DNA of 64,000 nt from Paramacrobiotus metropolitanus (taxonomy: Eukaryota; Tardigrada; Eutardigrada; Parachela; Macrobiotidae), in the NCBI RefSeq assembly GCF_019649055.1, contig NW_026570310.1, forward strand, positions 372,001 through 436,000, given 5' to 3'. The notes beneath the pieces are model-generated. The model did not search any database, had not been told where the DNA came from, and saw only the letters and a program-made list of their open reading frames with translations. Made by a program: the position numbers and the translations under genes. Each line of letters begins with the position of its first letter. Position 1 is the first letter of the stretch. Below, in pieces: positions 1 to 14,572 of this stretch.

Positions 1-528
1 ATTCCCCCGTCTGGTTTGATTCATAGTCCCTACAATCCGGACACCGATTATGTGGAGCTGCATCCCGAAACTCGATTGCGTTTCCGCGGCAAGATTTACC
101 ATAATGGATCGGAGATGACGTTGGACAAATACAACCGCTTTGTTCACACTCTAGATTTGTCAAAGGACGCACATTATGCATTGTTGCGTTACCTGCGGGT
201 GGACTTCCGCCAAGGATGGCTCATCGGGCAAATTGTTTGCGAACTCCGTCGCAAATTTGGATTATGTCCCGGGGAAACGGGAGACCATGGTGCCGTTGTT
301 ACGCTCGTGGACGCGTATAATCAGCATATCGAGGAATTGGTTTCCAATATTGACGAGGATCACCGCTTGGAAGCAGAGCAGCGCTATTTCGATCGTTTGA
401 ATGCAGCGGATCCGCGCTCGTCATCCCAACAACAGCAGCAATTGCAACAAACTCGTTGGCTGTTACAGAAGGATTTCGGGTTGCTGCAGCGGATCCGCTC
501 GTCGTCCAACAACAGCACGCCGCGATGA
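1..528 (+). CDS. Partial gene of an unrecognised PYNPD family, C-terminal exon
   Basis: The frame is open from the left edge to a TGA at 526-528, so the true start or a splice acceptor lies upstream of the window. I do not recognise the protein. It has a G-x-I-x-x-PYNPD motif near the visible start, a middle helical region with CELRRKFGL, and a Q/S-rich tail. The same G-I-x-x-PYNPD motif opens exon 2 of the gene at 7463-9032, and ELRRKFGL resembles ELLRKEFGL in the gene at 1133-1917, so the three may be diverged relatives. The tail contains an out-of-frame duplicated segment (403-437 and 486-516). An AATAAA follows at 801-806. Coding status is fairly secure; function is unknown. Confidence 0.6.
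   Translation: MPPSGLIHSPYNPDTDYVELHPETRLRFRGKIYHNGSEMTLDKYNRFVHTLDLSKDAHYALLRYLRVDFRQGWLIGQIVCELRRKFGLCPGETGDHGAVVTLVDAYNQHIEELVSNIDEDHRLEAEQRYFDRLNAADPRSSSQQQQQLQQTRWLLQKDFGLLQRIRSSSNNSTPR
403..516 (+). repeat. Short direct duplication in the tail of the first gene
   Basis: The segment GCAGCGGATCCG...CAACAACAGCA occurs at 403-437 and again at 486-516 with small differences. The copies are about 83 bases apart, not a multiple of three, so the second copy is read in another frame and gives an unrelated C-terminus. It looks like a replication-slippage or repair duplication. Confidence 0.7.
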
Positions 529-1132
529 TGATGATGATATGGGCGCTGCTGTTTAGCCGTTTCCCTTCAACACAGCCTTTAATAGCTTTTCACGTTATTG
601 TGCCCTCTACTTCGCCATTATCTGGGGTTTTTCACGGTTTGAAATGAGTACCCTTTTCTTTCTTTGAGTTTACAAATTCGGTACAGCCTATTATCTGTCA
701 GTTCTACAATTAGCTTTTAGTGTTGCTTTTCAATGCACAACTTCTCTATGTATTGGCTTACCGTTGTCGGCCTCGCACGATATTAAATTGGCGGTTTGGC
801 AATAAATGGTTGAATAGTGTTTAAATCCGATTGTTTTAAATTACAATTCCCGGGAAATCCAAGCAAAACAGTACAGCTACACATAAAAGGTGTAAATATC
901 ATTGCGTTCTGGAAAAACGTAAAGTCTACACGTTTGAACACGTAAATATTTATGTCACTGTAGCAACCGCCCGTATGTCGTGAAATGTTAGGGCAGTAGC
1001 AGTTTCAGTCTGCCAGCTGTTTCCGGTTTGCACAGCTGCAGTGTGTCAGCAGTTTTCATGTTTGGATCTGCAGCTCTCTCGTCTTTTCTCATTTACATTC
1101 TTTTCCGTTTAAATCCCTACTATTCTTTTAAA
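529..1132 (+). promoter_or_regulatory. 3' region with AATAAA, then leader of the next gene
   Basis: An AATAAA hexamer at 801-806 lies about 275 bases after the stop of the first gene and is a plausible polyadenylation signal. The rest is AT-rich with no convincing coding frame. An upstream in-frame open stretch (1028-1132) precedes the ATG chosen for the next gene. Confidence 0.4.
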
Positions 1133-1917
1133 ATGGAGATGGAATTTTATAAATCCGAGCGCGGGCGTATGATTTGTGCTGAACAAGACGAGAAGAAGCG
1201 CCGTAAGTTCGTCAGATTTTCTGATTCTGTTGCGTATGTTCTGGCGAACCAGGAACACATTTCCGAGTTGGTGTACTTTTGGCGTTCTTTGGATGGCCCG
1301 TATATTTCTATTTCGGAGCTTTGTAAACTCTCTACTTCCGAAATTATGGCCTTGAATTTTACAGAACCCGAGCCATTGGATTTTGAGGCTCAGGTGGCTT
1401 TAGAGATCGAGAAAGTTCGTGCGTCGGAAATGCAGATGTATTACTTGAAGATCGGTTTCATTCTGTATCCCGACACTCTGTCCTACGTGAAGCATCTGAA
1501 CTGCTTCGAAAGGAATTTGGCTTGCCATCCTTATTCAACCCGCCGGAAACCCCACGCGAGCGCCATCAGCGCATGGTAGAACACAACAAGCGTGTGATGG
1601 AGGAGGAACTCTGTTGTGTTGACTGCGAGAATAATGGCCCGGGTTCTTGTGGCCGTATTTTGTACACCTTGGATGATGACGAGCCTGTTCCAAATATCTG
1701 GGGATCTGGCAATCTTGAAGATTGGAAAGAGCCAGATTTAGACGTGGATGACTGGTGGGCAGAGAATAAGCTGGATTTTAAGGATCCGATGGAATTTTTG
1801 CCTGTGGACATGCTGTGGGTGGATGAAGACTTCGGCACGAATCAGAAACCGAAGAAAAAGCGTAAGCACTTTGTGCAGCGCCATTCCCTGCGCGGAATCC
1901 GTCTTTCCTCTTTCTGA
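1133..1917 (+). pseudogene. Frameshifted nuclear-type protein, possible relative of first gene
   Basis: The frame starting at ATG 1133 runs to about 1475. The coding-looking signal then moves to another frame, which stays open to a TGA at 1915-1917. The first part contains a charged segment with KKRRKF. The second part contains ELLRKEFGL, a Cys cluster (CCVDCENNGPGSCG), a long acidic Asp/Trp-rich stretch, and near the end KPKKKRK, which matches a classical monopartite nuclear localisation signal. ELLRKEFGL resembles ELRRKFGL of the gene at 1-528, which suggests tandem relatives. I see no splice pair that repairs the frame; a one-base indel near 1475-1500 or a programmed shift would. Function unknown. 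Confidence 0.5.
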
Positions 1918-2552
1918 TTAGCCGCCTGTATTTTTAAGAGAACCGCTTAATGATTTAAACTGTATAGGCTCCTTTTTTGTTTTAATCTCTCGCTGTTTCC
2001 GGCCCCTTATCTGCGTTTTGAGGATGCTGAGCGCAACATGCTTAATCATGTATAATTTTATAGCTGCTGCCTTTTAGCATTTAAAATAACTGTTGTTTTG
2101 CTCTCCTCCCGGTTGTGATCGAGCCTACAGTTATGGCTCTGTTTTCTATGAATTTTGTACTGATGGAATGATCCGTAATTTTATAGGCTTTAAGTATTTT
2201 GTAAAAAGGAATTAAAAGCCTGTGGAAGTTAGGATTTTGCGTGTTAAAAGCGGTAAATTGTCGAGCGTATATTCGTTTAATATACACACTCTAGCGAAAT
2301 TGCTGACGGTGCTAAGAAGTGTTGCTTCAATATAAACGCTCTGCCGTAGGCCGTGTGTTAATGGACTTCGCTGGTTACGAAGTATGCGGTCGCCAGTGTG
2401 GGCGGCTGTCAAACTCCTATCCTGAATGTATCCCAGTGTAAAATTTTCGTACAATCTAAATTATATTATTCCCTTTCACTGATACGCCCGATATCGTTGC
2501 GATAACTTTTATCTTATTCCGTTCTTTGTGTTGTTGTGGTTTTCATACCAAT
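1918..2552. other. Intergenic, AT-rich, no gene seen
   Basis: AT-rich sequence with only short shadow frames. No repeat, TATA box or RNA gene was recognised. Confidence 0.5.
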
Positions 2553-2735
2553 ATGACTCTTCCAGCTTCGGAGAAAAAGAAAGCGGCCAAGCAGGCGCTG
2601 GAAACCCGTGTGACAGCGTGGACGGAGATTGTGGCGCAGAAGATGGCTGAGCGCACTGAAGCCCAGCAGCGTTTCGAGCGTGGCAGAATTGCCGTTAAGG
2701 AGGCTGTGTCTGAGCTCCCTCCCAAGATTCCTTAA
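2553..2735 (+). CDS. Small coiled-coil protein (60 aa)
   Basis: ATG at 2553, TAA at 2733-2735. The protein is short, charged and helical, rich in Lys, Glu, Gln and Ala, and would form a single amphipathic helix or short coiled coil ending in PPKIP. Not recognised. It sits between the frameshifted gene and the tRNA-like array, all on the plus strand. The amino-acid pattern looks coding, but its small size leaves doubt; it could be a terminal exon. Confidence 0.4.
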   Translation: MTLPASEKKKAAKQALETRVTAWTEIVAQKMAERTEAQQRFERGRIAVKEAVSELPPKIP

Positions 2736-3285
2736 TGTGGCATCATCTGGACTTTTGAAGTGGATTTTGCCCACTATCGTTAGAATGCCTGGTATTTTGT
2801 GTGAAGCACTTGAAATACATCGCTACACGCATATGATTTTCTCTTGTCTTTCTTCCTGCATTTGTACGCCCATGTCCCTCTTTTCTGAGACCTCGTACTG
2901 TAGATCTGGCACGGCGCTCAATCTTTCATTTTTATTGTTTTACGGTTAGTTTTCTCCTTTATTCAGATTGCGTTTTGCCACACGCGTTGTACACTGTTTA
3001 GTTGCCACACTATGGTTTTTGCGTTTCGTTCCGTAAGACACTTTTGTTGTTTGGTTACTATGTGAGTTGCGAATTTATTAAAGTTTAAGTAGTCACCGTC
3101 ACTGCTGTTATCGGTAAATTCGGAACAGTGTAATACACGACCGCACGAGACTACACTTCCGTTGGGATGTCGTACTCGTTTTCATGCAGCTGGTCACCTT
3201 GGTTGGTGAGCCACAGGCACATTCACTATGGGTTGTTGCTAATGTACGCCTTTGGCGCTTCCACTAAACAGGATTTTGCGTAGAG
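2736..3285. other. Intergenic before the tRNA-like array
   Basis: T-rich sequence with no clear gene. No A/B-box pair was found before 3290, so this is the left border of the array. Confidence 0.4.
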
Positions 3286-3384
3286 CGACCCCGCTAGTAT
3301 AGTAGAGGCTTCCGTTGCTTCGTCATTGGAGGTCGGAGGTTCCAGTCCACATAAAAATGCGATTTTGTAAATATCCTCCTTTTT
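3286..3384 (+). ncRNA. tRNA-like unit 1
   Basis: A-box-like TAGTATAGTAGAGG begins near 3296. The B box GGTTCCAGTCC at 3338-3348 is close to consensus. The T5 tract is at 3380-3384. Transcription is inferred from the boxes only. Confidence 0.45.
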
Positions 3385-3511
3385 GGTTTTTATTCCATGA
3401 ATCGTTATATTTTTATTCATGGGACTTAATATGCGGAATATTGGGTGAATCCCTGTTGAGAGGTGTCAAAATGAACACTGCAAGCTGTGTTATTAGTACT
3501 ATTTTTGTCGA

Positions 3512-3632
3512 TGACTCTTGTAGTCGAGTGGTCCAGTAAGTGGACAATACCAGGCGAATCCGTTTACCTGTTGCTGGTCCTGGGTTTCAATTCCTAAAAA
3601 TTTAAAAGCGTTTTCTTAAAACCTTCTTTTTT
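3512..3632 (+). ncRNA. tRNA-like unit 2
   Basis: A box TAGTCGAGTGG at 3521-3531 is near-perfect. The B box GGTTTCAATTCC at 3583-3594 is one base long. CCTTC is followed by T6 at 3627-3632. Confidence 0.45.
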
Positions 3633-3749
3633 GTGTTTAAACTTTTGCACTTAGTTGTACTTACATATTCGGTGTGACACTGTTAATCTCTTATTAGTTT
3701 TCAATGAGCGGCGCACAAGTGTACAGCCCTTCGGATTTTGCTCTTTTGC

Positions 3750-3865
3750 CGTGAGACTTCGTAGTGTAGTGGTTGTCCGTCTTGTCTCCGCTACCACTCA
3801 GTCAGTTTAGGGCCCTGGGTTCGAAAACCCTACAAGTAATGCATATTTCTTTAAACCTTCTTTTT
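3750..3865 (+). ncRNA. tRNA-like unit 3
   Basis: A box TAGTGTAGTGG from 3762. B box GGTTCGAAAACC at 3818-3829. AAACCTTC is followed by T5 at 3861-3865. It resembles unit 6 in the tail and downstream spacer. Confidence 0.5.
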
Positions 3866-3964
3866 GGATTTTATTTTGTTGTAGTAGCATCAAATATGCA
3901 TTGCCGCTGACCGTTGTAATTTTACGATCGTTTCCGATGAGCAAATTCAAAATTACTGTCGTAG

Positions 3965-4077
3965 AACAGCGTAGTATAGTGCTTTGCACCGTTGAACTAC
4001 AGCAACGGGGAAATGAAACGGTTGCGGGTTCAAGTCCCTTACAGCTAATTTGCAATTTTGAGAAACTTACTTTTTTT
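3965..4077 (+). ncRNA. tRNA-like unit 4
   Basis: A-box-like TAGTATAGTGC from 3972. Perfect B box GGTTCAAGTCC at 4027-4037. T7 at 4071-4077. A 5-bp stem CGTTG/CAACG with an 8-base loop containing CTA sits where an anticodon arm would lie. The normal U33 is absent, so a decoding role is doubtful. Homologous to unit 7. Confidence 0.5.
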
Positions 4078-4225
4078 AGTTTTATATTCTTGTTGTCGTC
4101 TTGGGAAAAGTGTTGACAATAGTTCCCAGAATATTACAATTAAACTCAAAGAGCTGGGTGTAAAATTGTATACACACTCAATGGTTAACATTGCACTTGG
4201 CCGTCTGGTTGTCTGTATTCGAATG

Positions 4226-4324
4226 ACTTTGTAGTTCAGTGGCTGTGTATGATGGCCATTCATTACAATTACTACCTCTTTGAATCTCAGGGTTGCATGC
4301 TGCATGTTTAAAAACTACATTTTT
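4226..4324 (+). ncRNA. tRNA-like unit 5 (degenerate B box)
   Basis: A box TAGTTCAGTGGC from 4232 matches the consensus. The B-box position (4290-4301) reads GGGTTGCATGCT and is degenerate. T5 at 4320-4324. Confidence 0.35.
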
Positions 4325-4447
4325 CTCCCCTACATTTTTGTACTTTTGTGGGATGAAGAGTTAATCGTTGGTGCCTTATTGCAGTCAGGTTAAATATACA
4401 CGACATGGCGCTTCCGGTGTTCAACCTAACTCGGCTAAAGCGTAGAG

Positions 4448-4556
4448 CACCTTGTGGCGTAGTGGCTAGACTGACAATCCATACCGACCCGCTTCTTACA
4501 AAGTCTAGAGTTCGAAATCCTAAAAGTTAATCCGTTTAATTTAAAACCTTCTTTTT
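4448..4556 (+). ncRNA. tRNA-like unit 6
   Basis: A box TGGCGTAGTGGCT at 4455-4467. B box AGTTCGAAATCC at 4509-4520. AAAACCTTC is followed by T5 at 4552-4556. Paralogue of unit 3. Confidence 0.5.
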
Positions 4557-4654
4557 CGGTTTTCATATTTTTAAGTCAATATGCAGCATTACGTTGGCTT
4601 CGAGATTGCTAATTTTACGGTCACTCCCGACGAGCGAGGTTAAAGTTTAACTCC

Positions 4655-4770
4655 GCAGATTGTAGTGGCGTGGTGCACTGAACTGTTGAACCACAACAAC
4701 AGGTGCAATGAAGGTTGCGGGTTCGAAACCCCTTGAATCTAAAATTGCATTTTCTGAAATCTTACTTTTT
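4655..4770 (+). ncRNA. tRNA-like unit 7
   Basis: A-box-like TAGTGGCGTGGTGC from 4663. Perfect B box GGTTCGAAACC at 4720-4730. T5 at 4766-4770. It has a 6-bp stem CTGTTG/CAACAG with an 8-base loop. Paralogue of unit 4. Confidence 0.5.
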
Positions 4771-4949
4771 CGTTTTTATGTTTTTACTGGCACTCTTGTG
4801 GAAATATTTCCGTTGTCGGTGTGAATTTTGCGATCACGATGGTGGTGAAATCTTAAAACTCACCAGCTGCTTCAGTGGTGAATTTTTATTATATTATATT
4901 GTGAATTTTCGTAGTACTGCGCCTCTAGTGATTGCCAAACTAAAAGCAT

Positions 4950-5073
4950 AATGTGGTATAGCCATGCTAGCGTATGGGCAAGAGCAGGATTTAGTTGTCC
5001 ACCTAGATGCAAGGTTCAATCCTGCGTGAATACAAATTTTGCGAGTGTTAAGAGTTTCTCTCCATTCTTTTTT
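4950..5073 (+). ncRNA. tRNA-like unit 8
   Basis: A-box-like TAGCGTATGGGC at 4968-4979. Perfect B box GGTTCAATCC at 5013-5022. T6 at 5068-5073. This is the most widely spaced unit and the last one seen. Confidence 0.4.
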
Positions 5074-5467
5074 CTTTTCTTTGGTGATTTCCGTAACTTT
5101 ATTTCCAGGATGGAATATTAAAATTGTTTTTAGCGTTTGATTCACAGTTACGAGTGCGATATTTGATTTTACTCTGTGAATTGGCTATTCTATATCGGAA
5201 TTGACTGCGGCTGCGACTGCGTATTCTCCTACACTGATTTTATTCCGGTTACTTAAAGCCTTACATAAATCCAAAATTAATCTCAAATTAAGATCTGTCC
5301 GACCAGCATAATTAACGACTATATGAGAATCTGTACACATGAGAATTACAAATAAGAGTGAGATTAAGAGATTAATACGAATCAAACAAAAGTCGGCCGA
5401 AAATCAGATTCAAATTATCAAACAGCCGCGGGAAAAGCATTATACGCATACGTTACAGCACTGCTAT
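5074..5467 (-). promoter_or_regulatory. 3' region of the minus-strand gene, with AATAAA
   Basis: A minus-strand AATAAA (TTTATT on plus, 5238-5243) lies about 225 bases beyond the stop of the next gene and could be its polyadenylation signal. No other gene is seen. Confidence 0.35.
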
Positions 5468-6842
5468 TTAATCCAGATCTAGATTCTCCTTCGCAGTTTT
5501 CAAGTTGGCAAGACGCTGTTCTAACGCTTCACGGATATATGCGATATGTTTAGCATCCATCGTCGCTCGAGCCTTCAGCGTATTTACCAGCGCCTTGCAG
5601 TTATCCATAATATCCTTTTCGCGTTCAACCTGTTCCAGTAAATTGTCGATTGCGTCTGGCTTTTTAATAGCATCCGGTTCTGCAGTGCTCACTTCATTGT
5701 CAGGCTTTTCGGCCTTCTCTTTGGTCTTTTGGTTCTTCTTCTTCGCATCCGCATTTTTCTCTGGGGCAACATATTTCGGACGGCCGCCCATAGCTTTTAG
5801 CTGAGTGAGCGTGATAATTGGTTCTCGCTCAATGCGTCCGTCTTTGCTAGCCCGGATTACCAAATTCACGTTGGCGGTATTATTCTTTGCCGGCTCGATT
5901 GCGTCCAGCCGCTCCATGACGCCATCGACAACCAAATCCCCGTCTTGTCCCACGTAACCGAAGCTACAATCGGCAACGTGTTGTTTTGTGTCTCTTCCGT
6001 TGACTGTCACCTTCATAGTGCCCATTTTGATATCTACAATTTAAATCACTTTGGTTAAATTACGGAAGGCAAGGTGATTTGCAGTAGGCGGCGTTGTTGT
6101 GCTATTGTAAAGCGTAAATATCAAGAATGCCACTTCGAAAAATACAGAAACACTTACTGATGGTCTGGGCTAGAGTGGTGCAGAGACAGCAGCCGCGAAT
6201 GCTTCGTAGCCACAGGTCGATGCAGCTATCCACGAAAAGATTCCCGTAGACGACGACGATATCTTTCTTTTTAACCAGTTGGCGCAGCCCGCGCTCCAGC
6301 CAGTAGTCTACGTCCTGCAGATGTACGTCGAACGTACAGATCCAGTGTTGGATTTCGGTCCGTGACATGGCATATCGGCCGTGGTACAGGATTACGCGAA
6401 TCATTCGACGAAATTTTCCGGTTGTGTCGATTACCTTCGTCTCTGGATCGCGGTTATTCTTGACTTCTTCGGCGACTTCTAGGACGAAGCGCCCGTCGCG
6501 CGACATCTTCTTGAGCAAGATTCCAGCATTAATAGCGTCGCCGAGGAAGAAATCCACTTGTTCTTCCGTGAAATCATCGTGCATTTCCACAATGAATTTC
6601 TTGATAGATGACATGTCCACATAATATCCCGTAATGTCAGCCTCAAGGATGCACGCGTGGGCTGCCGTATGCATCACCAATTGTCGACGGTTTCGGATGG
6701 TTTCGTTTGGCTGTAGAGGCTCCGCCATGGCAAACTGTACTGATTCGCGAGTCCGTCCCTTCCAGTATTCGTAGTGGGCAATCGCGTCCATTTCGGGCGA
6801 TGGCAGAGCCTCTCCAGTTGGTCCCACAGGCTGTGCTGACAT
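5468..6842 (-). CDS. Two-exon gene, paired winged-helix-like protein (416 aa)
   Basis: Minus strand: exon 1 is 6842-6158, exon 2 is 6033-5468, with a GT-AG intron at 6157-6034 (donor GTAAGTG, acceptor TTTAAATTGTAG). Splicing keeps the frame and gives 416 residues. Exon 1 encodes two segments of similar pattern: IKKFIVEMHDDF...DGRFVLEV and EIQHWICTFDVH...IVVVYGNLFV. Each is helix, helix, then a beta-wing-like pair, as in winged-helix domains; that assignment is inference. Exon 2 begins with a beta-rich part (MKVTVNGRD), then a Lys/Glu-rich linker and a C-terminal coiled coil. ATG 6025 would give a shorter exon-2-only product. Not recognised. It is divergent to the gene at 7463 across a 620-base spacer. 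Confidence 0.6.
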
Positions 6843-7462
6843 GATGACACAGCGATCCAGTGAAATAATGAATGAAAAGGTAACAGAAGGAAAAGCTAGT
6901 AACAAAATGAAACAGGAAATCCCGTCACCGCAAAAGGATAAAATTGATATTGTTGGGTTCTTCACTTTCACTTTTAGTAATGAACAGCTGATATTCTCTG
7001 TCCTGGTGAATCGGCATTCTGTCGCGCGTCAGCCGCCCTGATATGGCAATGCTATCGGAAACTGCGCAGTCTCCAGTCTGTGTTCTGAATATTTCCCAGC
7101 CGCGTGTTTTCCTTTTGGCTTTCCTCTTTCGTATCCCTTTAATCGTCATGATTTGTATGTTGTATTAAAATCTGGTTTTTGTGGTGGAAATTTACGAATC
7201 CTCGGAGAATTAATTGGTCTCCTGTGTGTTCTACGCCAAATGATCATAGTAGCTTCGAAATTTGCAAAAATTGCTGGTCGCCTGTCAAACGCCTGGTGGT
7301 ATACTTCGTGAATTTTGAGTTTCTGGTGTCGGTGCCAGTACAGATTATTTGTTGTGCTTTTTCTCCGCACTCCAGTCCTTCCATTTTCTGCAACAGCTGG
7401 TATTCGCTTGTTTTGTTTTGTTCTTCTCGTCTTCTACCATTTATCATTTCTACGCCTTGAGG
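6843..7462. promoter_or_regulatory. Shared spacer between divergent genes
   Basis: 620 bases separate the two start codons of divergently oriented genes, so both promoters should lie here. I see no clear TATA box. Frames in this stretch are short shadows. Confidence 0.35.
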
Positions 7463-9032
7463 ATGTCGCCTCCTGCAAAGAAAGCAACTGCGCGGAAGAC
7501 TGCATCGCGTACACCGCGCCCGAGTCGTGCAACTGCGGGACTGAGTTTTGGTTATTCTCCGGACAGCGATGAAGCCCGTTCTTCATCGCGTGTCACTCGG
7601 TCTCGAGTTTCTCGCCGAACTTCGGCTCAGCCAGTGTTTTCTGCACAATCTCCTGCACCATCTGCAAGTGTAAGTGCAGCAGTGGTTCAGCAACCTTCAA
7701 TGAGTCGGGCAGATGCAATAGTCAATGCTTTACAGCGTCGATATGATAAACAACGACGACGCACAATTTTGCGACGCCATGCTGCTGTGGTTCGCCGCCG
7801 TGCCCGTCGGGGATCATTCCCTACCAGTCCAGACGTTGAGATTCGTCAGCCGTCACCCAAGAAATTGCAGACGCAGGCGGAGAGACAGTTGGGCACTCCA
7901 GATCTCTCTGAAGAGGAGCCATCATCGTCCGAGACTCCGTCTGTACGAGCAAAGCGAGGTATCATTATAATACCTTGTTGTGGTTTCTTTTCCTAAGTAA
8001 CAACGATAGTATTTATCAGCGCTCTCGCTCATTTCTTGTCAGAGTTGTTGGCCTAACGTTCCGGTTAATGTGGTAGTGAATCCGTTTGGTGTATTTATTT
8101 AAAATTCTGGATAGCTGGCCTTTGTTGTCGTTGTGTGTCAATGATACAGTTTAGCGGGGATAATTCCTTGCCTCGCTGGTGTTAATTGTTGTTTCTTGTT
8201 TATATCAGATGAAGAGCATCTGCGTAAAGGCGGAATTTTATACGCGCCCTATAACCCGGATGCACCGCGGCCGGTCTTTAAGACCAAGCAGACGGCTCGC
8301 AAACGAGCGCACTCCGGAGTGTTTCCAAGAATGGCTATTGCGGATAAGCAGGATGAGCTGGCTGTATCTGAAGCCTTTTTTTCTGGACTAAATCGCTTTC
8401 ATCCTTTTTATCCACGTCTATATTTGTCGCGCTTTTTATTCCGTGACGGAGCTCTGATTAACCGTTTTGACTTATGTGCATTTACTCGGATGCTTCCTAC
8501 GGCTATCGCTCTTGAATTACGAGGCCAATATCTCTATCTCAATCCTGTTTTTATTGGTCTATTTAAAGAAATCGCCAATCGTCAGCAGCGTGATGCGGTG
8601 GCTCGTCAAGCGGTAGTCGATGCTGGCGTCGTGGAAAATGCTGAACCGCAGGCTTCAACTTCTGCTACACGCCCGTATAATTTTCGCACTCGTGGGGAAA
8701 AGCGCAAGTACAAGGAAGTCTCGCCGTCCTAGTCCTCTGCGCCAAGTGAAGTTTCGGTTTCGGATGATGGGGAAGATCGCGAGGATCCTTCGGCCGTGTT
8801 ATCCCCTGATCAGAGTGCTGATGTCGAAGCTGATGAGAACGCGGACATGGTAGTTGATTGTGAGGGCGACGATGGATCTGACTTGGAGAAGATGGATGTA
8901 GATCCGTTGCCGTCTCTGCAGTCGGCTGTTCCAGCTGTGCCACCTGTTGCCGTAGTTGCCCGCGAGGACTCACCTGAGATTGCGGAACCGGCAGGCTATA
9001 TTCAACAACAGCCGCATTCTGATGAATTGTGA
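7463..9032 (+). CDS. Two-exon basic/acidic nuclear-type protein with in-frame TAG
   Basis: Exon 1 is 7463-7958 and exon 2 starts at 8209. The 250-base intron has donor GTATCA and acceptor TTTATATCAG, and joining restores an Asp codon in frame. Exon 1 encodes a Ser/Arg/Lys-rich disordered basic region. Exon 2 opens with GGILYAPYNPD, like the first gene, followed by a hydrophobic helical region and a basic RTRGEKRKYK segment. A TAG at 8730-8732 ends a 339-residue product. The same frame then stays open for 99 more codons to a TGA at 9030-9032, and this part is strongly acidic and Ser-rich with the composition of a real tail. The TAG is thus a nonsense mutation, a readthrough site or a recoded stop. 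Function unknown; charge and basic runs suggest a nucleic-acid or chromatin role. Confidence 0.6.
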
Positions 9033-9573
9033 ATCCATTTTTGCTGGTTTTTATCTTTTCATGTCGTATATTTTACCCATGCTCTGATTCATTCATTCTT
9101 CGTATTAATTTGCATTTGGATGAGTAAATTGTCCTCTTGGTTTTTGCTCTGTAGCTCTCGCTGTGAAGTTGTAGGAATTTCGTATTATCCAATTTTTATT
9201 TTTCTAAGTTTATGCGCTTTGAGTCATTGAACTGGTCGTTAGTGTATTGTATGTGCGCGGTAGCCGCCAGTGCCGAATCTTTCGTTGTACCTGGATTAGA
9301 TCTGATTTTCCGATTACGTTGAATTAAAAGGATATAGCGCGAAGCGCTGATTGGTTGCTTCTCTTACCAGTATGGAATCTGCCGCACTTTAAAATTTCGC
9401 TCCAGCAGACAGGTATAAAATCACTTGCGTGTAGTGTGCAGAAATCGGCATTGTGGATTTTTCGATTCGGCCTTCTGGCATGCTGGATTTTCACTGTGTG
9501 TAGACTGTGATTTCGACGCTTTTCCTCTATACACTTTTAGTGTTTAAGGTCACTAGTTTTCTTTAGTCTGGGC
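9033..9573 (+). promoter_or_regulatory. Promoter region with TATA box at 9414-9420
   Basis: TATAAAA at 9414-9420 lies about 155 bases upstream of the ATG at 9574. A start site near 9445 would give a leader of about 130 bases. The upstream part is T-rich 3' sequence of the previous gene. Confidence 0.5.
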
Positions 9574-10371
9574 ATGCCGCCTATTGATCCTAACCGAGCC
9601 TTTGATAAGCTGAAAGACGCTATTTTTCATTCGTCCTCCAACCAGCAGCAACAGCAGTATAATGCCGGTTATAATCACCGAGGAAGGGGTGGAGCCCGTG
9701 GTGCTTACCGTGGCAACTTTCGTCCGTACGGCCGAGGAAATCATAGGAATTTTGGAGACAATAACTTGCGTCGTGGAAACGATCATTGGCGTCGTAATGG
9801 CCGACCTCTGGGCGCACCGGAAGTTATTGAAGTACCTGATGGAGTCGATCACCCAGTTGCTCCAGTGGAAGCTGCCGCCGCAAACATGGAGGTTGATGAC
9901 CCGGGCAACCAAGCAGCGAATGCACCGAATCCGGTCCAAGGCAACGGAAATGTGGCTGCAGGTGAGCCCAATGGTGTCAACCCTGCTGTCAATCTACATG
10001 GTTCGCCAGCCTTGAATGCCGTTGTCGTTCCTCCGGCTGTCATTCCACCTGCGCAGCAGCAAGCCCCGCAGAACGCTGAATTTCCCGGTTTGCCACCAAA
10101 CGTGTTGCCCCTTGCCGAAGTGCCGATTGTCCGCGATGCCCGCGACCGTTCTCCGGCTGATCGCCCACGTGCGCCGTCTGCGCCTTCTGGCCCTGTTGGG
10201 TCTGCAGAGCATAATTTTGTACCCGGTTATTTGGCCCAGCAACAGCAACGTGAATTGGATGTCGATCGCCGACGTCAGATGGCTGCGGAAGTTTCTCGCC
10301 GTTTGGATGCCGCTGCATCTGGCTCTGGTATTACCGGTCTCTTTTCATTGGCTCCCAGTGCTGGCAAGTAA
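9574..10371 (+). CDS. RGG/Q-rich disordered protein (265 aa)
   Basis: ATG at 9574, TAA at 10369-10371. The N-terminus is followed by a poly-Gln run and an RG/RGG-rich segment (about residues 32-70: HRGRGGARGAYRGNFRPYGR). Then comes a long Pro/Ala/Asn/Val-rich disordered region and a C-terminal charged helix with QQQQRELDVDRRRQ. RGG segments in known proteins bind RNA and drive condensates, so RNA binding is a reasonable inference. I cannot name a family. A TATA box precedes it and AATAAA follows at 10701-10706. The long open frame with biased composition supports coding. Confidence 0.6.
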   Translation: MPPIDPNRAFDKLKDAIFHSSSNQQQQQYNAGYNHRGRGGARGAYRGNFRPYGRGNHRNFGDNNLRRGNDHWRRNGRPLGAPEVIEVPDGVDHPVAPVEAAAANMEVDDPGNQAANAPNPVQGNGNVAAGEPNGVNPAVNLHGSPALNAVVVPPAVIPPAQQQAPQNAEFPGLPPNVLPLAEVPIVRDARDRSPADRPRAPSAPSGPVGSAEHNFVPGYLAQQQQRELDVDRRRQMAAEVSRRLDAAASGSGITGLFSLAPSAGK

Positions 10372-11518
10372 CCTTGACTCACCTCTGACATTGACCTTGT
10401 TTGCTCTCTTTGATCTCATATTGTTACTGGCTTTGTTGCACTGCCTTGACTTTTGATTTTGTTGCCTTTTACTGGTTTACATTATTGTATCAGTGTGCTG
10501 GTAGATTGCACTCACCATTTTGATACGCTTATTTGTAGCTTGTTTGTTGTTGTTGACATTTGTTGCTGTACGATGTGATTCGTAGTATTCGAGAATTCGT
10601 AAGAATACTACTGGTTGGTTGATTTGGTGCTTTTGCTCGTTTAATCCATAGTGCTACAGAAGCGCACATAATCACATTTTAAGATTTTAATCTCACAATT
10701 AATAAAGCTTTATGCCGTATACTGTACATACACAACACCATCCAAACTCAAACGGCACACTGGTCGTAAATTCATAGTTGCCTTCCTGGATCCTTGGACC
10801 TCCGCCCTGCCAAACCCGTGGACTTCCGGCTGCCTTTTCGCCAAGGATTCCACATATTCACTCATTCGGAATCACGGCGTACAGTCACATTGGGCATCGG
10901 ATGGACGCGTGGATTGTGCGGTGGAACGGGATCAGGATGGATGGAAGTGCAAAATCGCACTGGGATATTGCGGGATGGATTGCTTACATTGGCACGGCCA
11001 AGCATCGTTCGTGGGGGTGACGTGTGGGAGCAGGATCACACGCCGGTTGTACATACTGATGCTGACTGTCCGCCTTCCACCTGCAACACAACGAATAATC
11101 TAGTCAATCTCTTCTGTGATTTGTTGTCCTCTTTTACTAGCGATGTATATGATGTCATAACGCAAAGTCTATATAAGTTTTGGTTGTCACTAATATCGGA
11201 ATTAGTAGTCTGAGATTTACTTCTGAGACTGCTTCTAATTACAATTTCCTAGCGTTGTGAACTGTGTTGTGAATTGGACAAAGAGACAGCAATACTTGTT
11301 CCTACTGAAGTGCATAGTTGCTCCCGGATTATCGCTTAGTATACAGGTTTGCTCGTGACACAATCGTCCTAGCTCTTGCCGATCCTCACAGGACTTACGA
11401 CCGGAGATTGTAGTTGGACCTTCGTTAGGGATTCCTGACTCGTGTTTCTGAATCGTTCGTCAGTTCTCCACCATAGATCTTCTGTTACAGTTTGAGAGTA
11501 CGAGTGCCTACCGACTGA
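10372..11518. other. 3' region with AATAAA, then promoter-like sequence
   Basis: AATAAA at 10701-10706 suits the RGG gene. Further on, TCTATATAAG at 11168-11177 is a strong TATA-like site about 350 bases before the RING frame. The stretch 11150-11527 ends in AATTACAG and could be a 5' leader with splice acceptor, or a retroelement LTR fragment; I found no second copy. The frame at 10794-11213 is not convincing. Confidence 0.35.
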
Positions 11519-11839
11519 CAATTACAGGCGTGGAAGAGTAAAGATTGTTCATGGAGCCTTAAACGGCGTGAACGCTTATACACGACAAAGGCTGTCCAAC
11601 GGTTTCAACGTTTCAACCGCATCCAGGACCTCGTGAGAGCGGCTAATAAAATCAAGGCCCGCACCATCGAAGCACGACTGGACGAAAACTGTCAGCTGGA
11701 AAAGGAGTGCAGCGTATGCTTGAATAAAAACGTTTCAATCTGTTTTTCACCGTGTGGGCATGCAATTTGTTGCACCGAATGTGCTGGTCGCGTACAGGAA
11801 TGCCCGCTTTGCCGTCAGCTGATTTTGGAAAAAATTTAA
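11519..11839 (+). CDS. IAP-type RING finger protein (C-terminal part)
   Basis: The frame is open from 11519 (TGA at 11516-11518) to a TAA at 11837-11839. A possible splice acceptor AATTACAG precedes 11528. The C-terminus is a clear C3HC4 RING of the inhibitor-of-apoptosis kind, with CSVCLNK, PCGHAICCTEC and CPLCRQ supplying the zinc ligands. The preceding part is basic and helical. RING domains of this type act as E3 ubiquitin ligases; IAP-like RING proteins occur in several DNA viruses and Polinton-like elements. No BIR domain is visible. An upstream exon could exist. Position directly before the ATPase suggests it belongs to the element, but it could be an independent host exon. Confidence 0.65.
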   Translation, partial: QLQAWKSKDCSWSLKRRERLYTTKAVQRFQRFNRIQDLVRAANKIKARTIEARLDENCQLEKECSVCLNKNVSICFSPCGHAICCTECAGRVQECPLCRQLILEKI

Positions 11840-11907
11840 ATGTTTTTTGCATAAATAGTCAATTTAAGCCGCCGAGCTTACTGGTGTGAATTATTTCGGA
11901 ATCAAAA

Positions 11908-12598
11908 ATGTTTGGAATAATAAATGATTATCCGCGCTTTTGCGCTCCTTTTGGTATGTGTGTTTGTGGACCTACAATGTTGGGTAAAACGCAGTTTGTT
12001 TTCATTTTGCTAAAAAACAGTTTAGCGGTATTCGATCGCCTACCAACTCGGATACTATATTGTTAGAAGTCAGTGGCAGAAAGGTTTTGACGAACTACGA
12101 AAAGACGTTGCACAAGTTGAGTTCTTACATGGTTTGAATGACCTCTTCTCAGTGGTGCAATCTATCGATAGCGACAACCATACTTTAGTCGTCATTGATG
12201 ACCTGGCTACGGATCTGTGTAAAGACGTGCGGTTCTCGGACCTCTTTACCCGTGGAATACATCATAAGAATATTTCTGTCATCATGCTCCTTCAAAACCT
12301 GTACAAACAAGAAAAGACTGTGCGGGACATAACGCTGAACTCCCAGTACCTGGTACTATTTAAGCACGTGCGTGATATCAATCAGATCTCCTTATTCGCT
12401 CGTCAAACAGGACTCAAGCATTTGGTGGGCGCATACAACAAAGTCACAACAGAGGCATATCAACCGCTTGTCTTGGACTTACGCCCCAACTGCTTCGACT
12501 ATTTAAGGGTTCGTTCGCACGTGCTACCGAATCAACAGATGCGTATTTATCTCGACCGAAACCGTACCAACGACCTGCCAAAATGTCCGAACGCGTGA
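11908..12598 (+). pseudogene. Packaging ATPase of a Polinton-type element, one frameshift
   Basis: The ATG at 11908 opens a frame with a Walker A motif (GPTMLGKTQF, 11968-11997). It is closed by a TAG near 12064. The coding signal resumes in another frame from about 12045 and runs to the TGA at 12596-12598, including a Walker B motif (LVVIDDL) near 12185-12205. The pattern fits the FtsK/HerA-like genome-packaging ATPases of adintoviruses and Polintons, which move DNA into the capsid. The length is near normal if the break is ignored. One indel around 12045-12060 separates the two halves. The end overlaps the next start by 16 bases, typical of these compact elements. Confidence 0.7.
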
Positions 12599-12909
12599 AA
12601 GCTCTGGCACCCTTCATAATTACTCTTCAACACCTGAAGCCGCAGCAGCGCAAGGTCTTGATGAGCTACCTGACCAAGACCCAACTAAAAGCACTGGAAG
12701 AGGTCGCTGTTAACATTGTAAAAAATACTGTGAATTTGTCTCCAGCGCAGGCAGAGAAATGTAAACGCCACCGGAAGGCATTAAAGCTGATTGCCCTGCG
12801 CCGGTATCCGCTCAAAGAAAAACGGAAAATATTTCAACAAGGAGGATTCATTGGAGCCATCTTACCTGTCATTGCTGGAGTTTTAAAATCGTTGATCGGT
12901 AATGGATGA
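12583..12909 (+). CDS. pX-like small basic protein of Polinton/adintovirus type
   Basis: 108 residues from ATG 12583 to TGA at 12907-12909, unbroken. The N-terminal two thirds is helical and rich in Lys/Arg/Leu. The C-terminus is GGFIGAILPVIAGVLKSLIG, a Gly-rich hydrophobic segment. This architecture is common to small proteins beside the ATPase in adintoviruses, where they have been compared with the adenovirus core protein pX; the comparison is from memory of the family. A role in virion core or membrane contact is inferred. It overlaps the ATPase before it and the core protein after it. Confidence 0.6.
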   Translation: MSERVKALAPFIITLQHLKPQQRKVLMSYLTKTQLKALEEVAVNIVKNTVNLSPAQAEKCKRHRKALKLIALRRYPLKEKRKIFQQGGFIGAILPVIAGVLKSLIGNG

Positions 12910-13741
12910 ACTCTTCACAGTACCACGGCGTGTGATGGAGAACCGGATGCAGAACCAGCTCCAGATCAACAAGGAGCCCCCAGAAGCTCACAGTGTCATA
13001 ACGTTGAATGCGCTAGTGGCGAAAACACTGCAACGAACCGATATAAGTGAATTTGAAAAAGCTAGCCAGTTAAGCAGCATTCTGGAACGGTTCCTCGCTC
13101 TTAAACAAAAAGCCATACCCGATGAAAATCCTTTGGAATTATCAACTGACGTTGCCGCACAACCACCACCGATAGCTTCCGTAAAGCAGCCGGCAGCCTC
13201 TGCACACCAAGCGCTACGACTGCCGACGGTTTCGTCGCTACCAACACATCCAGCACCTCGCAAGCGTAAACTGTTGGAAGAAACGGATGAGTCAACTAAG
13301 CCTGCTAAGCAGCTTCGACAACCATTAATTCCGTCGGATCTACCTACCAAAGGCCAAAAGCGGGACCTGGAAAACGATAAGGAAGACAGCAATAGACCAA
13401 AGGCAGCGCGCATTGCTTTGTTTCCATCAAAACTGCCTAAGAAAGGACGCAAGCGGTATTTTCAAGACGACAGCGGTGAAGTGCGACCAACCAAAACAGC
13501 GCGCATAGCGTTGTTTGCCCCGACAGCACCGCGGAAAGGTCGGAAACGGCAACCCGAAGACACGGAGAACCCAACATATCCATACAAGCGACCGCGGCGA
13601 CCTCTATTTCCGGTCACCACTCCCTTTCGCGGTAAAAATAAAAAAGCGGACCAGATTGAAGGCAGTGTGAGGAAGCTGCGCTCCCGTACTCTTCAAAAAG
13701 GATCGGGTGCGTCCAGAATCCAGTGGATTACTCTGACGTAA
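12902..13741 (+). CDS. Repeat-rich basic core-type protein of the element (279 aa)
   Basis: ATG at 12902, TAA at 13739-13741, unbroken. The N-terminal 70 residues are helical and resemble the conserved start of a protein found beside the ATPase in adintoviruses. From about residue 120 a motif recurs about four times at 31-33-residue spacing: a short basic/hydrophobic block (PLIP, ARIALFP, ARIALFA, RRPLFP) followed about ten residues later by a basic K-G-x-K/R block. Between them are acidic Asp/Glu stretches. This looks like a DNA-binding or condensing core protein. An intact frame beside broken ATPase and integrase is noteworthy. Exact homologue not identified. Confidence 0.55.
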   Translation: MDELFTVPRRVMENRMQNQLQINKEPPEAHSVITLNALVAKTLQRTDISEFEKASQLSSILERFLALKQKAIPDENPLELSTDVAAQPPPIASVKQPAASAHQALRLPTVSSLPTHPAPRKRKLLEETDESTKPAKQLRQPLIPSDLPTKGQKRDLENDKEDSNRPKAARIALFPSKLPKKGRKRYFQDDSGEVRPTKTARIALFAPTAPRKGRKRQPEDTENPTYPYKRPRRPLFPVTTPFRGKNKKADQIEGSVRKLRSRTLQKGSGASRIQWITLT

Positions 13742-13757
13742 TGGCTAGCTTGCTGCC

Positions 13758-14572
13758 TAGTGTATTACGATTATGCCGAATATTTAAGATCAATTGCGTG
13801 TCCACCTGTTGTAACAAAGCGGATGGAGAAGCTAATGAAGCGATACCTCAACCCACGCGACCCCGGCGGTCTTGGAGGCGTAGAAAGGTTTCGAGGAAGT
13901 CTCAAGACCAGAGCCAACAGACGGAAAGCACAGGAGATTCTGCAGGAGATCGATGCGTACACTGTGACCAAAGAAAATCGCCGGCGGTTTGCGCGCAATC
14001 GGATCGTAGTGACCAACCTTCGCCAGCAGTATCAAGCGGATCTGGCTGATTTGTCAAAATATTCCAAAGAAAATGACGGATTCAAACACCTTCTCTTTGT
14101 GATTGATTGCTTTTCCAAAAAGCTAAGCATTCAACCAATGAAAACCAAAACGGCCAAAGAAACCAAAAACGCTTGTCACAGGCCTTTGAAGAACTCGGCG
14201 AACCGGAGAAGCTGCAATACGATAAAGGAACCGAAGCTGTAAACGCCACCGTCAAGACTTTTCTGAAAGAAAAAGAATGGTTTCATCACATCGGAAAACG
14301 AAGACATAAAATGTGCCATGGCCGAACGTGTCATTCGCACCATAAAACCCCGATGTTTCGCCTGTTTCAGATTTCCATTAACACATTTGGACAGTAATCG
14401 AATGATGTGTTGTGGTATAAAATTGTTTATTGGATTGAGCCATCTTACTGATTCAAAGTCCCGGATGGTGTATGGTGCAAAAAGTGTCATGATGAGAAGG
14501 GAGAATTTGCGTAAAAGAATGCAAGACAAGACCTTTGCGTCGCCAGTGCACTCAGTGCCGTTAAGCCGATGA
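13758..14572 (+). pseudogene. Retroviral-type integrase of the element, two frameshifts
   Basis: Three successive frames carry parts of an rve-family integrase: 13758 to about 14170, about 14160 to 14300, and about 14300 to 14572. The first has DPGGLGGVERF and the motif QADLADL with the first catalytic Asp. The second has YDKGTEA with the second Asp. The third has AERVIRTIK with the catalytic Glu. These match the integrases of Polintons and adintoviruses, which insert the element DNA into the host genome. At least two indels break it, so this copy is inactive. The start overlaps the end of the core-protein frame region, so the original start is unclear. Confidence 0.75.

What the first reader, a model, noticed from the sequence alone, without database searches (positions are those of the whole stretch)
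3286..5073. Tandem array of eight diverged tRNA-like Pol III units in a gene island
Eight same-strand units with A box, B box and T-tract recur every 208-305 bases with conserved trailers. Two units form a higher-order duplication with two others. Ordinary tRNA clusters have canonical folds and near-identical copies; SINEs rarely stand in clean tandem. The layout recalls clusters of virus-encoded tRNA-like RNAs, and the flanking proteins are unfamiliar. It could be a family of structured Pol III regulatory RNAs.
Basis: partly seen in the sequence, partly recalled or inferred. Interest (0 to 1): 0.88.

Follow-up and report, generated by a model that had tools for sequence, protein, structure and literature searches.

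The report
Small-RNA gene array inside giant retrotransposon
A giant jumping gene in a tardigrade genome carries its own row of about eight tRNA-type small-RNA genes, kept by natural selection in many of its copies and in distant sister elements, so it looks like a retrotransposon equipped with virus-style small RNAs whose task is unknown.

Summary
In detail: eight same-strand units (A box, B box, T-run) stand every 208-305 bases, far beyond chance (unit 5 weakest). The "gene island" is the inside of a 24.1-kb Ty3/Gypsy-type LTR element (570-bp LTRs, 3 mismatches) in a genome matching the tardigrade Paramacrobiotus metropolitanus. An array or unit 8 follows 36 of 54 integrase places of the family. 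Two units searched genome-wide gave no sign of a dispersed SINE. Units are not recognised as tRNAs and show no stable or shared fold. Selection is clear: all 8 terminators are intact in every copy with letters there, against 2 of 26 other T-runs; cores diverge 0.46 times as much as spacers. Two sister copies (integrase 70-76% identical), whose arrays no longer align by BLAST, hold five and three homologous units at the same site. A copy of the LTR-tip/primer-site junction sits in all three arrays, unexplained. Best reading: element-encoded Pol III small RNAs. Transcription was not tested; function is inferred.

The parts
3286..5073 (+). array of eight tRNA-like Pol III (type 2) units
3288..3384 (+). 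unit 1 (A box 3295-3305, B box 3338-3348, terminator T5 3380-3384)
   Evidence: also found by the sister-family model R2
3514..3632 (+). unit 2 (A box 3521-3531, B box 3583-3594 with one extra base, terminator 3627-3632)
3755..3865 (+). unit 3 (A box 3762-3772, B box 3818-3828, terminator 3861-3865); absent in 6 of 29 aligned copies
3965..4077 (+). unit 4 (A box 3972-3982, B box 4027-4037, terminator 4071-4077)
4226..4324 (+). unit 5, weakest (A box 4232-4242, degenerate B region about 4291-4303, terminator 4320-4324)
4396..4411 (+). 16-base exact copy of the LTR-tip/primer-binding-site junction, 43 bases before the A box of unit 6
   Evidence: counterpart ACGACATGGC in both sister arrays read
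4448..4556 (+). unit 6 (A box 4455-4465, B box 4509-4519, terminator 4552-4556); duplicate of unit 3
4656..4770 (+). unit 7 (A box 4663-4673, B box 4720-4730, terminator 4766-4770); duplicate of unit 4
4961..5073 (+). unit 8 (A box 4968-4978, B box 5013-5023, terminator 5068-5073); interior and B box conserved at 0.995 or more
1..11587 (+). right part of the 24,148-bp LTR element (C90:359440-383587); its left part, with a gag-position frame, protease, RT, RNase H and integrase, lies in the 12.6 kb left of the window (L018, L009)
11018..11587 (+). right LTR, 570 bp, TG...CA, 3 mismatches to the left LTR, 4-bp target-site duplication AAGG
1387..1917 (+). accessory frame (overlaps frame 992-1579), dN/dS 0.08-0.18 in four copies
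2553..2735 (+). 60-aa accessory frame, dN/dS 0.07-0.17 in four copies
5468..6842 (-). antisense gene, two exons (about 6842-6159 and 6033-5468, limits inferred from the annotated protein), matches 410- and 404-aa proteins of P. metropolitanus
   Evidence: homologue in sister copy C94
7319..7996 (+). accessory frame, dN/dS 0.13-0.20 in three copies
8145..8732 (+). accessory frame, dN/dS 0.14-0.21 in four copies
9541..10371 (+). accessory frame with an N/Q- and R/G-rich start, dN/dS 0.07-0.14 in three copies

Best explanation
The array is an accessory gene module of a giant Ty3/Gypsy-type LTR retrotransposon. Each unit is a small type 2 Pol III gene: TFIIIC and Pol III use its internal A and B boxes and stop at the conserved T-run, giving an RNA of roughly 90-120 nt that is not a tRNA. 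Because Pol III makes these RNAs separately, the element gets several small RNAs without cutting its own genomic RNA, as is reported for bovine leukaemia virus and foamy viruses. The most likely task is to act in trans on a host factor, as a decoy or guide, in favour of the element. Shown: the anatomy, the LTR-element context, constraint on A boxes, interiors and terminators, and common descent of units across three families. Inferred from motif and conservation: Pol III transcription. Inferred by analogy only: action in trans.
For: A+B+T4 units far above chance. Unit cores more conserved than the rest: 4 of 1787 circular shifts reach the observed difference; A boxes alone 2 of 1787, stretches between the boxes 23 of 1787. 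Core divergence is 0.46 of spacer divergence (median of 28 copies, range 0.27-0.74). All 8 terminators are intact in 21-28 of 21-28 copies with letters there; of 26 other T4+ runs 2 are, and of the 8 others that are five long none is. By a looser count that includes copies with the unit's end missing, terminators are kept in 26-29 of 27-29. Of 54 integrase places of the family 36 have an array or unit 8 place 2-13 kb downstream; four of the other 18 have the internal box and four more a diverged unit 3 (C120, C213, C36, C117; 73-74%). Sister copies C9 and C94 have no significant nucleotide match to the own array yet have 5 and 3 units; cross-family alignment Z averages 3.08 with 31 of 64 at 3 or more, against -0.04 and 0 of 40 for own spacers. 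A model of the sister units has 2 matches in 94,000 bases, a model of the own units 2 in 39,002, all four being array units (2 of 8 units each), and none in 58,901 other bases of the window. Same setting in all three: a sense frame before, an antisense frame after.
Against: No transcription data of any kind were available. No stable or shared fold. Lack of TTTT inside the cores is no support: other homopolymers are depleted too, and for the window alone P(0) is 0.23. B boxes alone are weakly conserved by circular shift (110 of 1787) and unit 5 has no good one. Spacers also diverge less than synonymous sites of neighbouring frames (for example 0.09 against dS 0.33 and 0.66 in copy C50), so constraint or recombination is not confined to units. 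Unit number varies (3, 5, 8; unit 3 missing in 6 of 29 copies), so no single unit is essential. Only 2 of 8 units are found across families by profile, and three of the eight sister units (two of C9, one of C94) were placed by eye and alignment, not by the motif scan. Ten of 54 integrase places show no array or box, some at contig ends. No complementarity of 13 bases or more to the element except one 13-base match of unit 7.
Confidence: 0.55

Rival explanations
1. DNA-level boundary: the units bind TFIIIC and Pol III to separate the sense transcription unit from the converging antisense gene; the RNA itself does not matter.
For: In all three families read the array lies between a sense frame and an antisense frame. 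No RNA fold is conserved.
Against: Sequence between the boxes is conserved within the family (23 of 1787 shifts reach) and terminators are intact; factor binding alone should need neither. A full-length genomic RNA must cross the array.
Confidence: 0.2
2. Reverse-transcription module: the array and the internal copy of the LTR-tip/primer-site junction act in replication, for example as a second priming or strand-transfer site in a very long template.
For: 16-base exact copy of the junction between units 5 and 6, intact in 26 of the 27 aligned sequences that cover it, window included; 110 genome places of the 16-mer, none of the reversed control; 34 junction-box pairs taken from the 100 listed places have a median distance of 16,464, 28 of them at 16-17 kb; ACGACATGGC also precedes the first unit in both sister arrays read.
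Against: No product of transfer to the internal site: 0 genome places for the fused junction with up to 1 mismatch. No unit was seen to end in the complement of the primer site (by eye). The 16-base C9 form of the box occurs once in the genome, so the LTR junction of that family differs or is missing.
Confidence: 0.1
3. Captured, non-functional relic: a tRNA-derived SINE or tRNA pseudogene cluster caught by an ancestor and carried along.
For: Units look like decayed tRNA genes; the number varies; no fold.
Against: Constraint and persistence as homologous arrays across families whose arrays no longer align. No dispersed relatives: of 40 scored places of unit 8, 39 lie at an array, box or integrase of the family and one 4.5 kb from a partial array; all 40 scored places of unit 3 lie at such places.
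Confidence: 0.1
4. Pol III-transcribed microRNA precursors of the BLV or TMER type.
For: Clustered compact Pol III genes in a retroelement.
Against: No unit folds more stably than dinucleotide shuffles to a notable degree (z -1.5 to +2.3).
Confidence: 0.05

Closest known systems
Cassandra, Helenus and Ajax (TRIMp3), PMC10886601 (abstract and discussion section read)
   Same: LTR elements holding tRNA- or 5S-like Pol III promoter sequence; animal Helenus is linked there to Gypsy and has 4-bp target-site duplications
   Different: those are short non-autonomous elements with a small-RNA-like sequence in the LTR; here eight units lie in the interior of a 24-kb element with pol
Bovine leukaemia virus and foamy virus Pol III microRNA genes, PMC4267658 (passages read)
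   Same: in BLV, a cluster of independent compact type 2 Pol III genes inside a retro-transcribing genome
   Different: those encode pre-miRNA hairpins; no such hairpins found here
TMERs of murine gammaherpesvirus 68, PMC8223928 (passages read)
   Same: several viral tRNA-like Pol III RNAs
   Different: DNA virus; TMERs carry miRNA hairpins besides the tRNA-like part; units here reach their T-run 16-44 bases after the B box
Burro giant Gypsy-like elements of planarians, PMC6431247 (12 passages read)
   Same: giant Gypsy-type elements with accessory frames
   Different: no Pol III array is told of: the review's main text has 0 occurrences of 'tRNA' and of 'antisense'

Membership tests
Ty3/Gypsy LTR retrotransposon (Metaviridae) | paired LTRs, TG...CA, short target-site duplication | tested here: met
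   570-bp LTRs, 3 mismatches, AAGG on both sides
Ty3/Gypsy LTR retrotransposon (Metaviridae) | protease, RT, RNase H, then integrase | tested here: met
   gag-asp_proteas, RVT_1, RT_RNaseH, Integrase_H2C2, rve, in that order, over their cut-offs; no gag model matched, the gag frame is named by position
Ty3/Gypsy LTR retrotransposon (Metaviridae) | position in an RT phylogeny | not tested
   no tree built; the 120 listed RT relatives are 31-42% identical
functional tRNA gene | cloverleaf recognised by tRNA models | tested here: not met
   ARAGORN 0 at default; Rfam tRNA absent at E up to 10. ARAGORN at a 70% threshold names 11 weak folds, on units and outside them (no shuffle control)
tRNA-derived SINE | dispersed copies outside the element | tested here: not met
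   units 8 and 3: 43 and 45 candidates, 40 scored each, at family places. Sister array: 6 places, of which C9, C13 and C11 lie downstream of a sister integrase; C380, C248 and C395 were not examined. Six other units not searched singly
Type 2 Pol III gene | A box, B box some 30-55 bases downstream, T4+ terminator | tested here: met
   7 of 8 units; unit 5 B box degenerate
Type 2 Pol III gene | transcription by Pol III | not testable with these tools
   no RNA or ChIP data
TMER / BLV-type Pol III miRNA gene | pre-miRNA hairpin | tested here: not met
TRIMp3 (Helenus) | small-RNA-like sequence in the LTR of a short non-autonomous element | tested here: not met
   units lie about 6 kb inside the right LTR of a 24-kb element with pol

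The most novel reading that the evidence does not exclude
A giant ambisense LTR retrotransposon that has evolved like a complex DNA virus: it encodes a battery of its own Pol III small RNAs, old enough to be shared by split sister families, and tied through the duplicated LTR-tip/primer-site box to control of its own replication. No LTR element with such a module appeared in the listings of nine paper searches.
Probability: 0.2. Interest if true: 0.95.

Novelty: new variant of a known kind. Interest (0 to 1): 0.78.

Why it matters
Retroviral Pol III small RNAs are known from BLV and foamy viruses, and Pol III promoters in LTRs from small non-autonomous elements. A conserved interior array of several Pol III genes in a giant Gypsy-type element, beside a spliced antisense gene, would show that Metaviridae too can carry small noncoding RNA genes. 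The sister families give a comparative set, and the prediction (discrete RNAs of about 90-120 nt ending at named T-runs) can be checked in tardigrade RNA libraries.

Tried and rejected
Canonical tRNAs, Rfam families and a shared RNA fold: none found (in one search three sub-threshold chance matches). TTTT depletion in the cores as a sign of Pol III transcription: rejected, because AAAA and CCCC are depleted as well. Self-encoded primer: no unit seen to end in the complement of the primer site. Deletion elements made by transfer to the internal box: none found. Spliced-leader test for nematodes: no match. Structure of the antisense protein: mean pLDDT 41.8, not used. Rfam tRNA search of the genome found ordinary tRNA genes and was not used further. 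My early note of a 5-bp duplication was wrong; it is 4 bp. The A box of unit 8 was first put at 4952 and corrected to 4968 after the sister comparison; conservation figures used 4952.

Limits of the counts. L038 lacks unit 4 in the alignment but has eight matches to the 16-unit model. Genome DNA searches score only 40 candidates. The 54 integrase places are those of 83% identity or more among 66 matches (12 rows dropped: ten of the sister group, two short ones); one search scored 59 of 1377 candidates, and places are not always separate elements. One search used the 40 scored unit 8 places, five array places and six box places, all typed from earlier outputs. In L051 the motif scan hit units at 1032 and 1373 and one other pairing at 1167/1231; unit 1203 there and units 4871 and 5045 in L050 were placed by eye. 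Two sister copies were read of five sister integrase places; two more (C13, C11) show array matches by search, C72 none. In one search one or two in-frame stops occur in single copies of six of the twelve frames.

Full report
What is there. The window is G000:C90:372001-436000 of a 170-Mb assembly in 533 contigs. The organism was identified by protein match: the antisense gene at 5468-6842 hits two annotated proteins of Paramacrobiotus metropolitanus, 93% and 77% identical, on contigs of 368,510 and 584,782 bases, the lengths of contigs C128 and C94 here. The array stands as described: eight units, same strand, spacing 208-305 bases. Motif combinations of this kind are far above Markov expectation; the scan finds seven of the eight units, unit 5 being degenerate. 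Units 3+4 are duplicated as 6+7.

The setting. Copies of the array continue on both sides into a longer repeat that ends at window 11587 and 12.6 kb left of the window. The ends are 570-bp direct repeats with 3 mismatches, TG...CA, and a 4-bp duplication AAGG. The left part codes for protease, RT, RNase H and integrase in Gypsy order; the gag frame is named by position. The total is 24,148 bp. On the right the element abuts a RING-finger frame, with sub-threshold matches to a poxvirus A32-type ATPase and an rve integrase beyond. Its frames evolve under purifying selection in two to four copies compared: dN/dS 0.03-0.21 for the gag-position frame, pol and most accessory frames, 0.28-0.50 for frame 992-1579 and 0.19-0.35 for the frame of the first antisense exon, with dS of 0.08-1.09. 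The antisense gene is spliced: frames 6102-7028 and 5468-6040 form one 410-aa protein in the annotation.

Copies. Twenty-eight other array copies were aligned with the window. Unit 3 is missing in 6 of 29, unit 2 in one; each of units 4-8 is missing in two or three, among rearranged or cut stretches. Of 54 integrase places at 83% identity or more, 36 have an array or unit 8 place 2-13 kb downstream on the same strand. Of the 18 others, four have the internal box, and four more (C120, C213, C36, C117) have a unit 3 match of 73-74% about 6-6.7 kb downstream, as in the own copy. The remaining ten show nothing in these capped searches or run off a contig.

Selection. Cores from A to B box have mean majority 0.956 against 0.908 outside; 4 of 1787 circular shifts reach this. 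A boxes alone: 2 of 1787. B boxes alone: 110 of 1787, which is weak. Stretches between the boxes: 23 of 1787. Core divergence is 0.46 of spacer divergence (median over 28 copies). The sharpest result is for terminators: all 8 are intact in every copy with letters there, while 2 of 26 other T4+ runs are, and 0 of the 8 others that are five bases long. A looser count gives 26-29 of 27-29. A test on TTTT inside the cores gave no support, since other homopolymers are depleted too. Spacers are themselves less diverged than synonymous sites of neighbouring frames; I cannot say whether by constraint or recombination.

The internal box. Between units 5 and 6 lies a 16-base exact copy of the LTR-tip/primer-site junction, intact in 26 of the 27 aligned sequences that cover it. 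The genome holds 110 places with the 16-mer and none of the reversed control. Ten of these bases, ACGACATGGC, precede the first unit of both sister arrays read by 46 and 68 bases, against 45 before unit 6. A fused form that would show strand transfer to the box was not found. The box also makes a good start-codon context (by eye); I cannot decide among these readings.

What it is not. ARAGORN at default and Rfam find no tRNA. Units 3 and 8 do not occur dispersed: 40 of 40 and 39 of 40 scored places lie at an array, box or integrase of the family, the other 4.5 kb from a partial array. No fold is notably more stable than shuffles or shared, so neither a miRNA precursor nor a structured RNA is supported.

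Reading. The best-supported view is a set of Pol III small-RNA genes that belong to the element. Promoter, interior and terminator are under constraint, which fits production of RNAs rather than mere factor binding. Trans-action on a host factor is an analogy to BLV, foamy virus and TMER RNAs (PMC4267658, PMC8223928, passages read). A chromatin boundary between converging genes is the main rival. Nine paper searches listed no LTR element with an interior Pol III array; most listed papers were seen as titles and abstract starts only, and the library lacks most subscription journals. One curated tardigrade repeat study (PMC11071193, passages) covers two other species.

Noticed in passing
window 11588-14572, and L018 about 7200-7439: The element is inserted beside a RING-finger frame, with BIR-like sequence on its far side seen by eye only; next come sub-threshold matches to a poxvirus A32-type ATPase and an rve integrase, so perhaps a Polinton/adintovirus-like remnant with an IAP-type gene.
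   Followed up: partly
L009:3524-7108 and 7069-9363: An integrase zinc-binding (H2C2) match, below its cut-off, lies in the RT frame upstream of the RT domain besides the strong one in the integrase frame; by eye a third copy near the integrase C end.
   Followed up: no
window 5468-6842: Antisense spliced gene in an LTR element, with annotated proteins and a homologue in sister copy C94 whose frame is interrupted at about the same place, intron-like by eye.
   Followed up: partly
C76 copy, L015/L023: Window -3316..79 is present twice in tandem inside this copy.
   Followed up: no
window 4400-4409, L050:4318-4327, L051 reversed 954-963: ACGACATGGC, the LTR-tip/primer-site junction, recurs before array units in three families; no explanation fits all data.
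   Followed up: partly
L050:4360-5170, L051 reversed 1020-1490: Sister units share a trailer around ATTTTGYAAA about 30 bases after the B box, fairly constant across the eight units aligned; role unknown.
   Followed up: no
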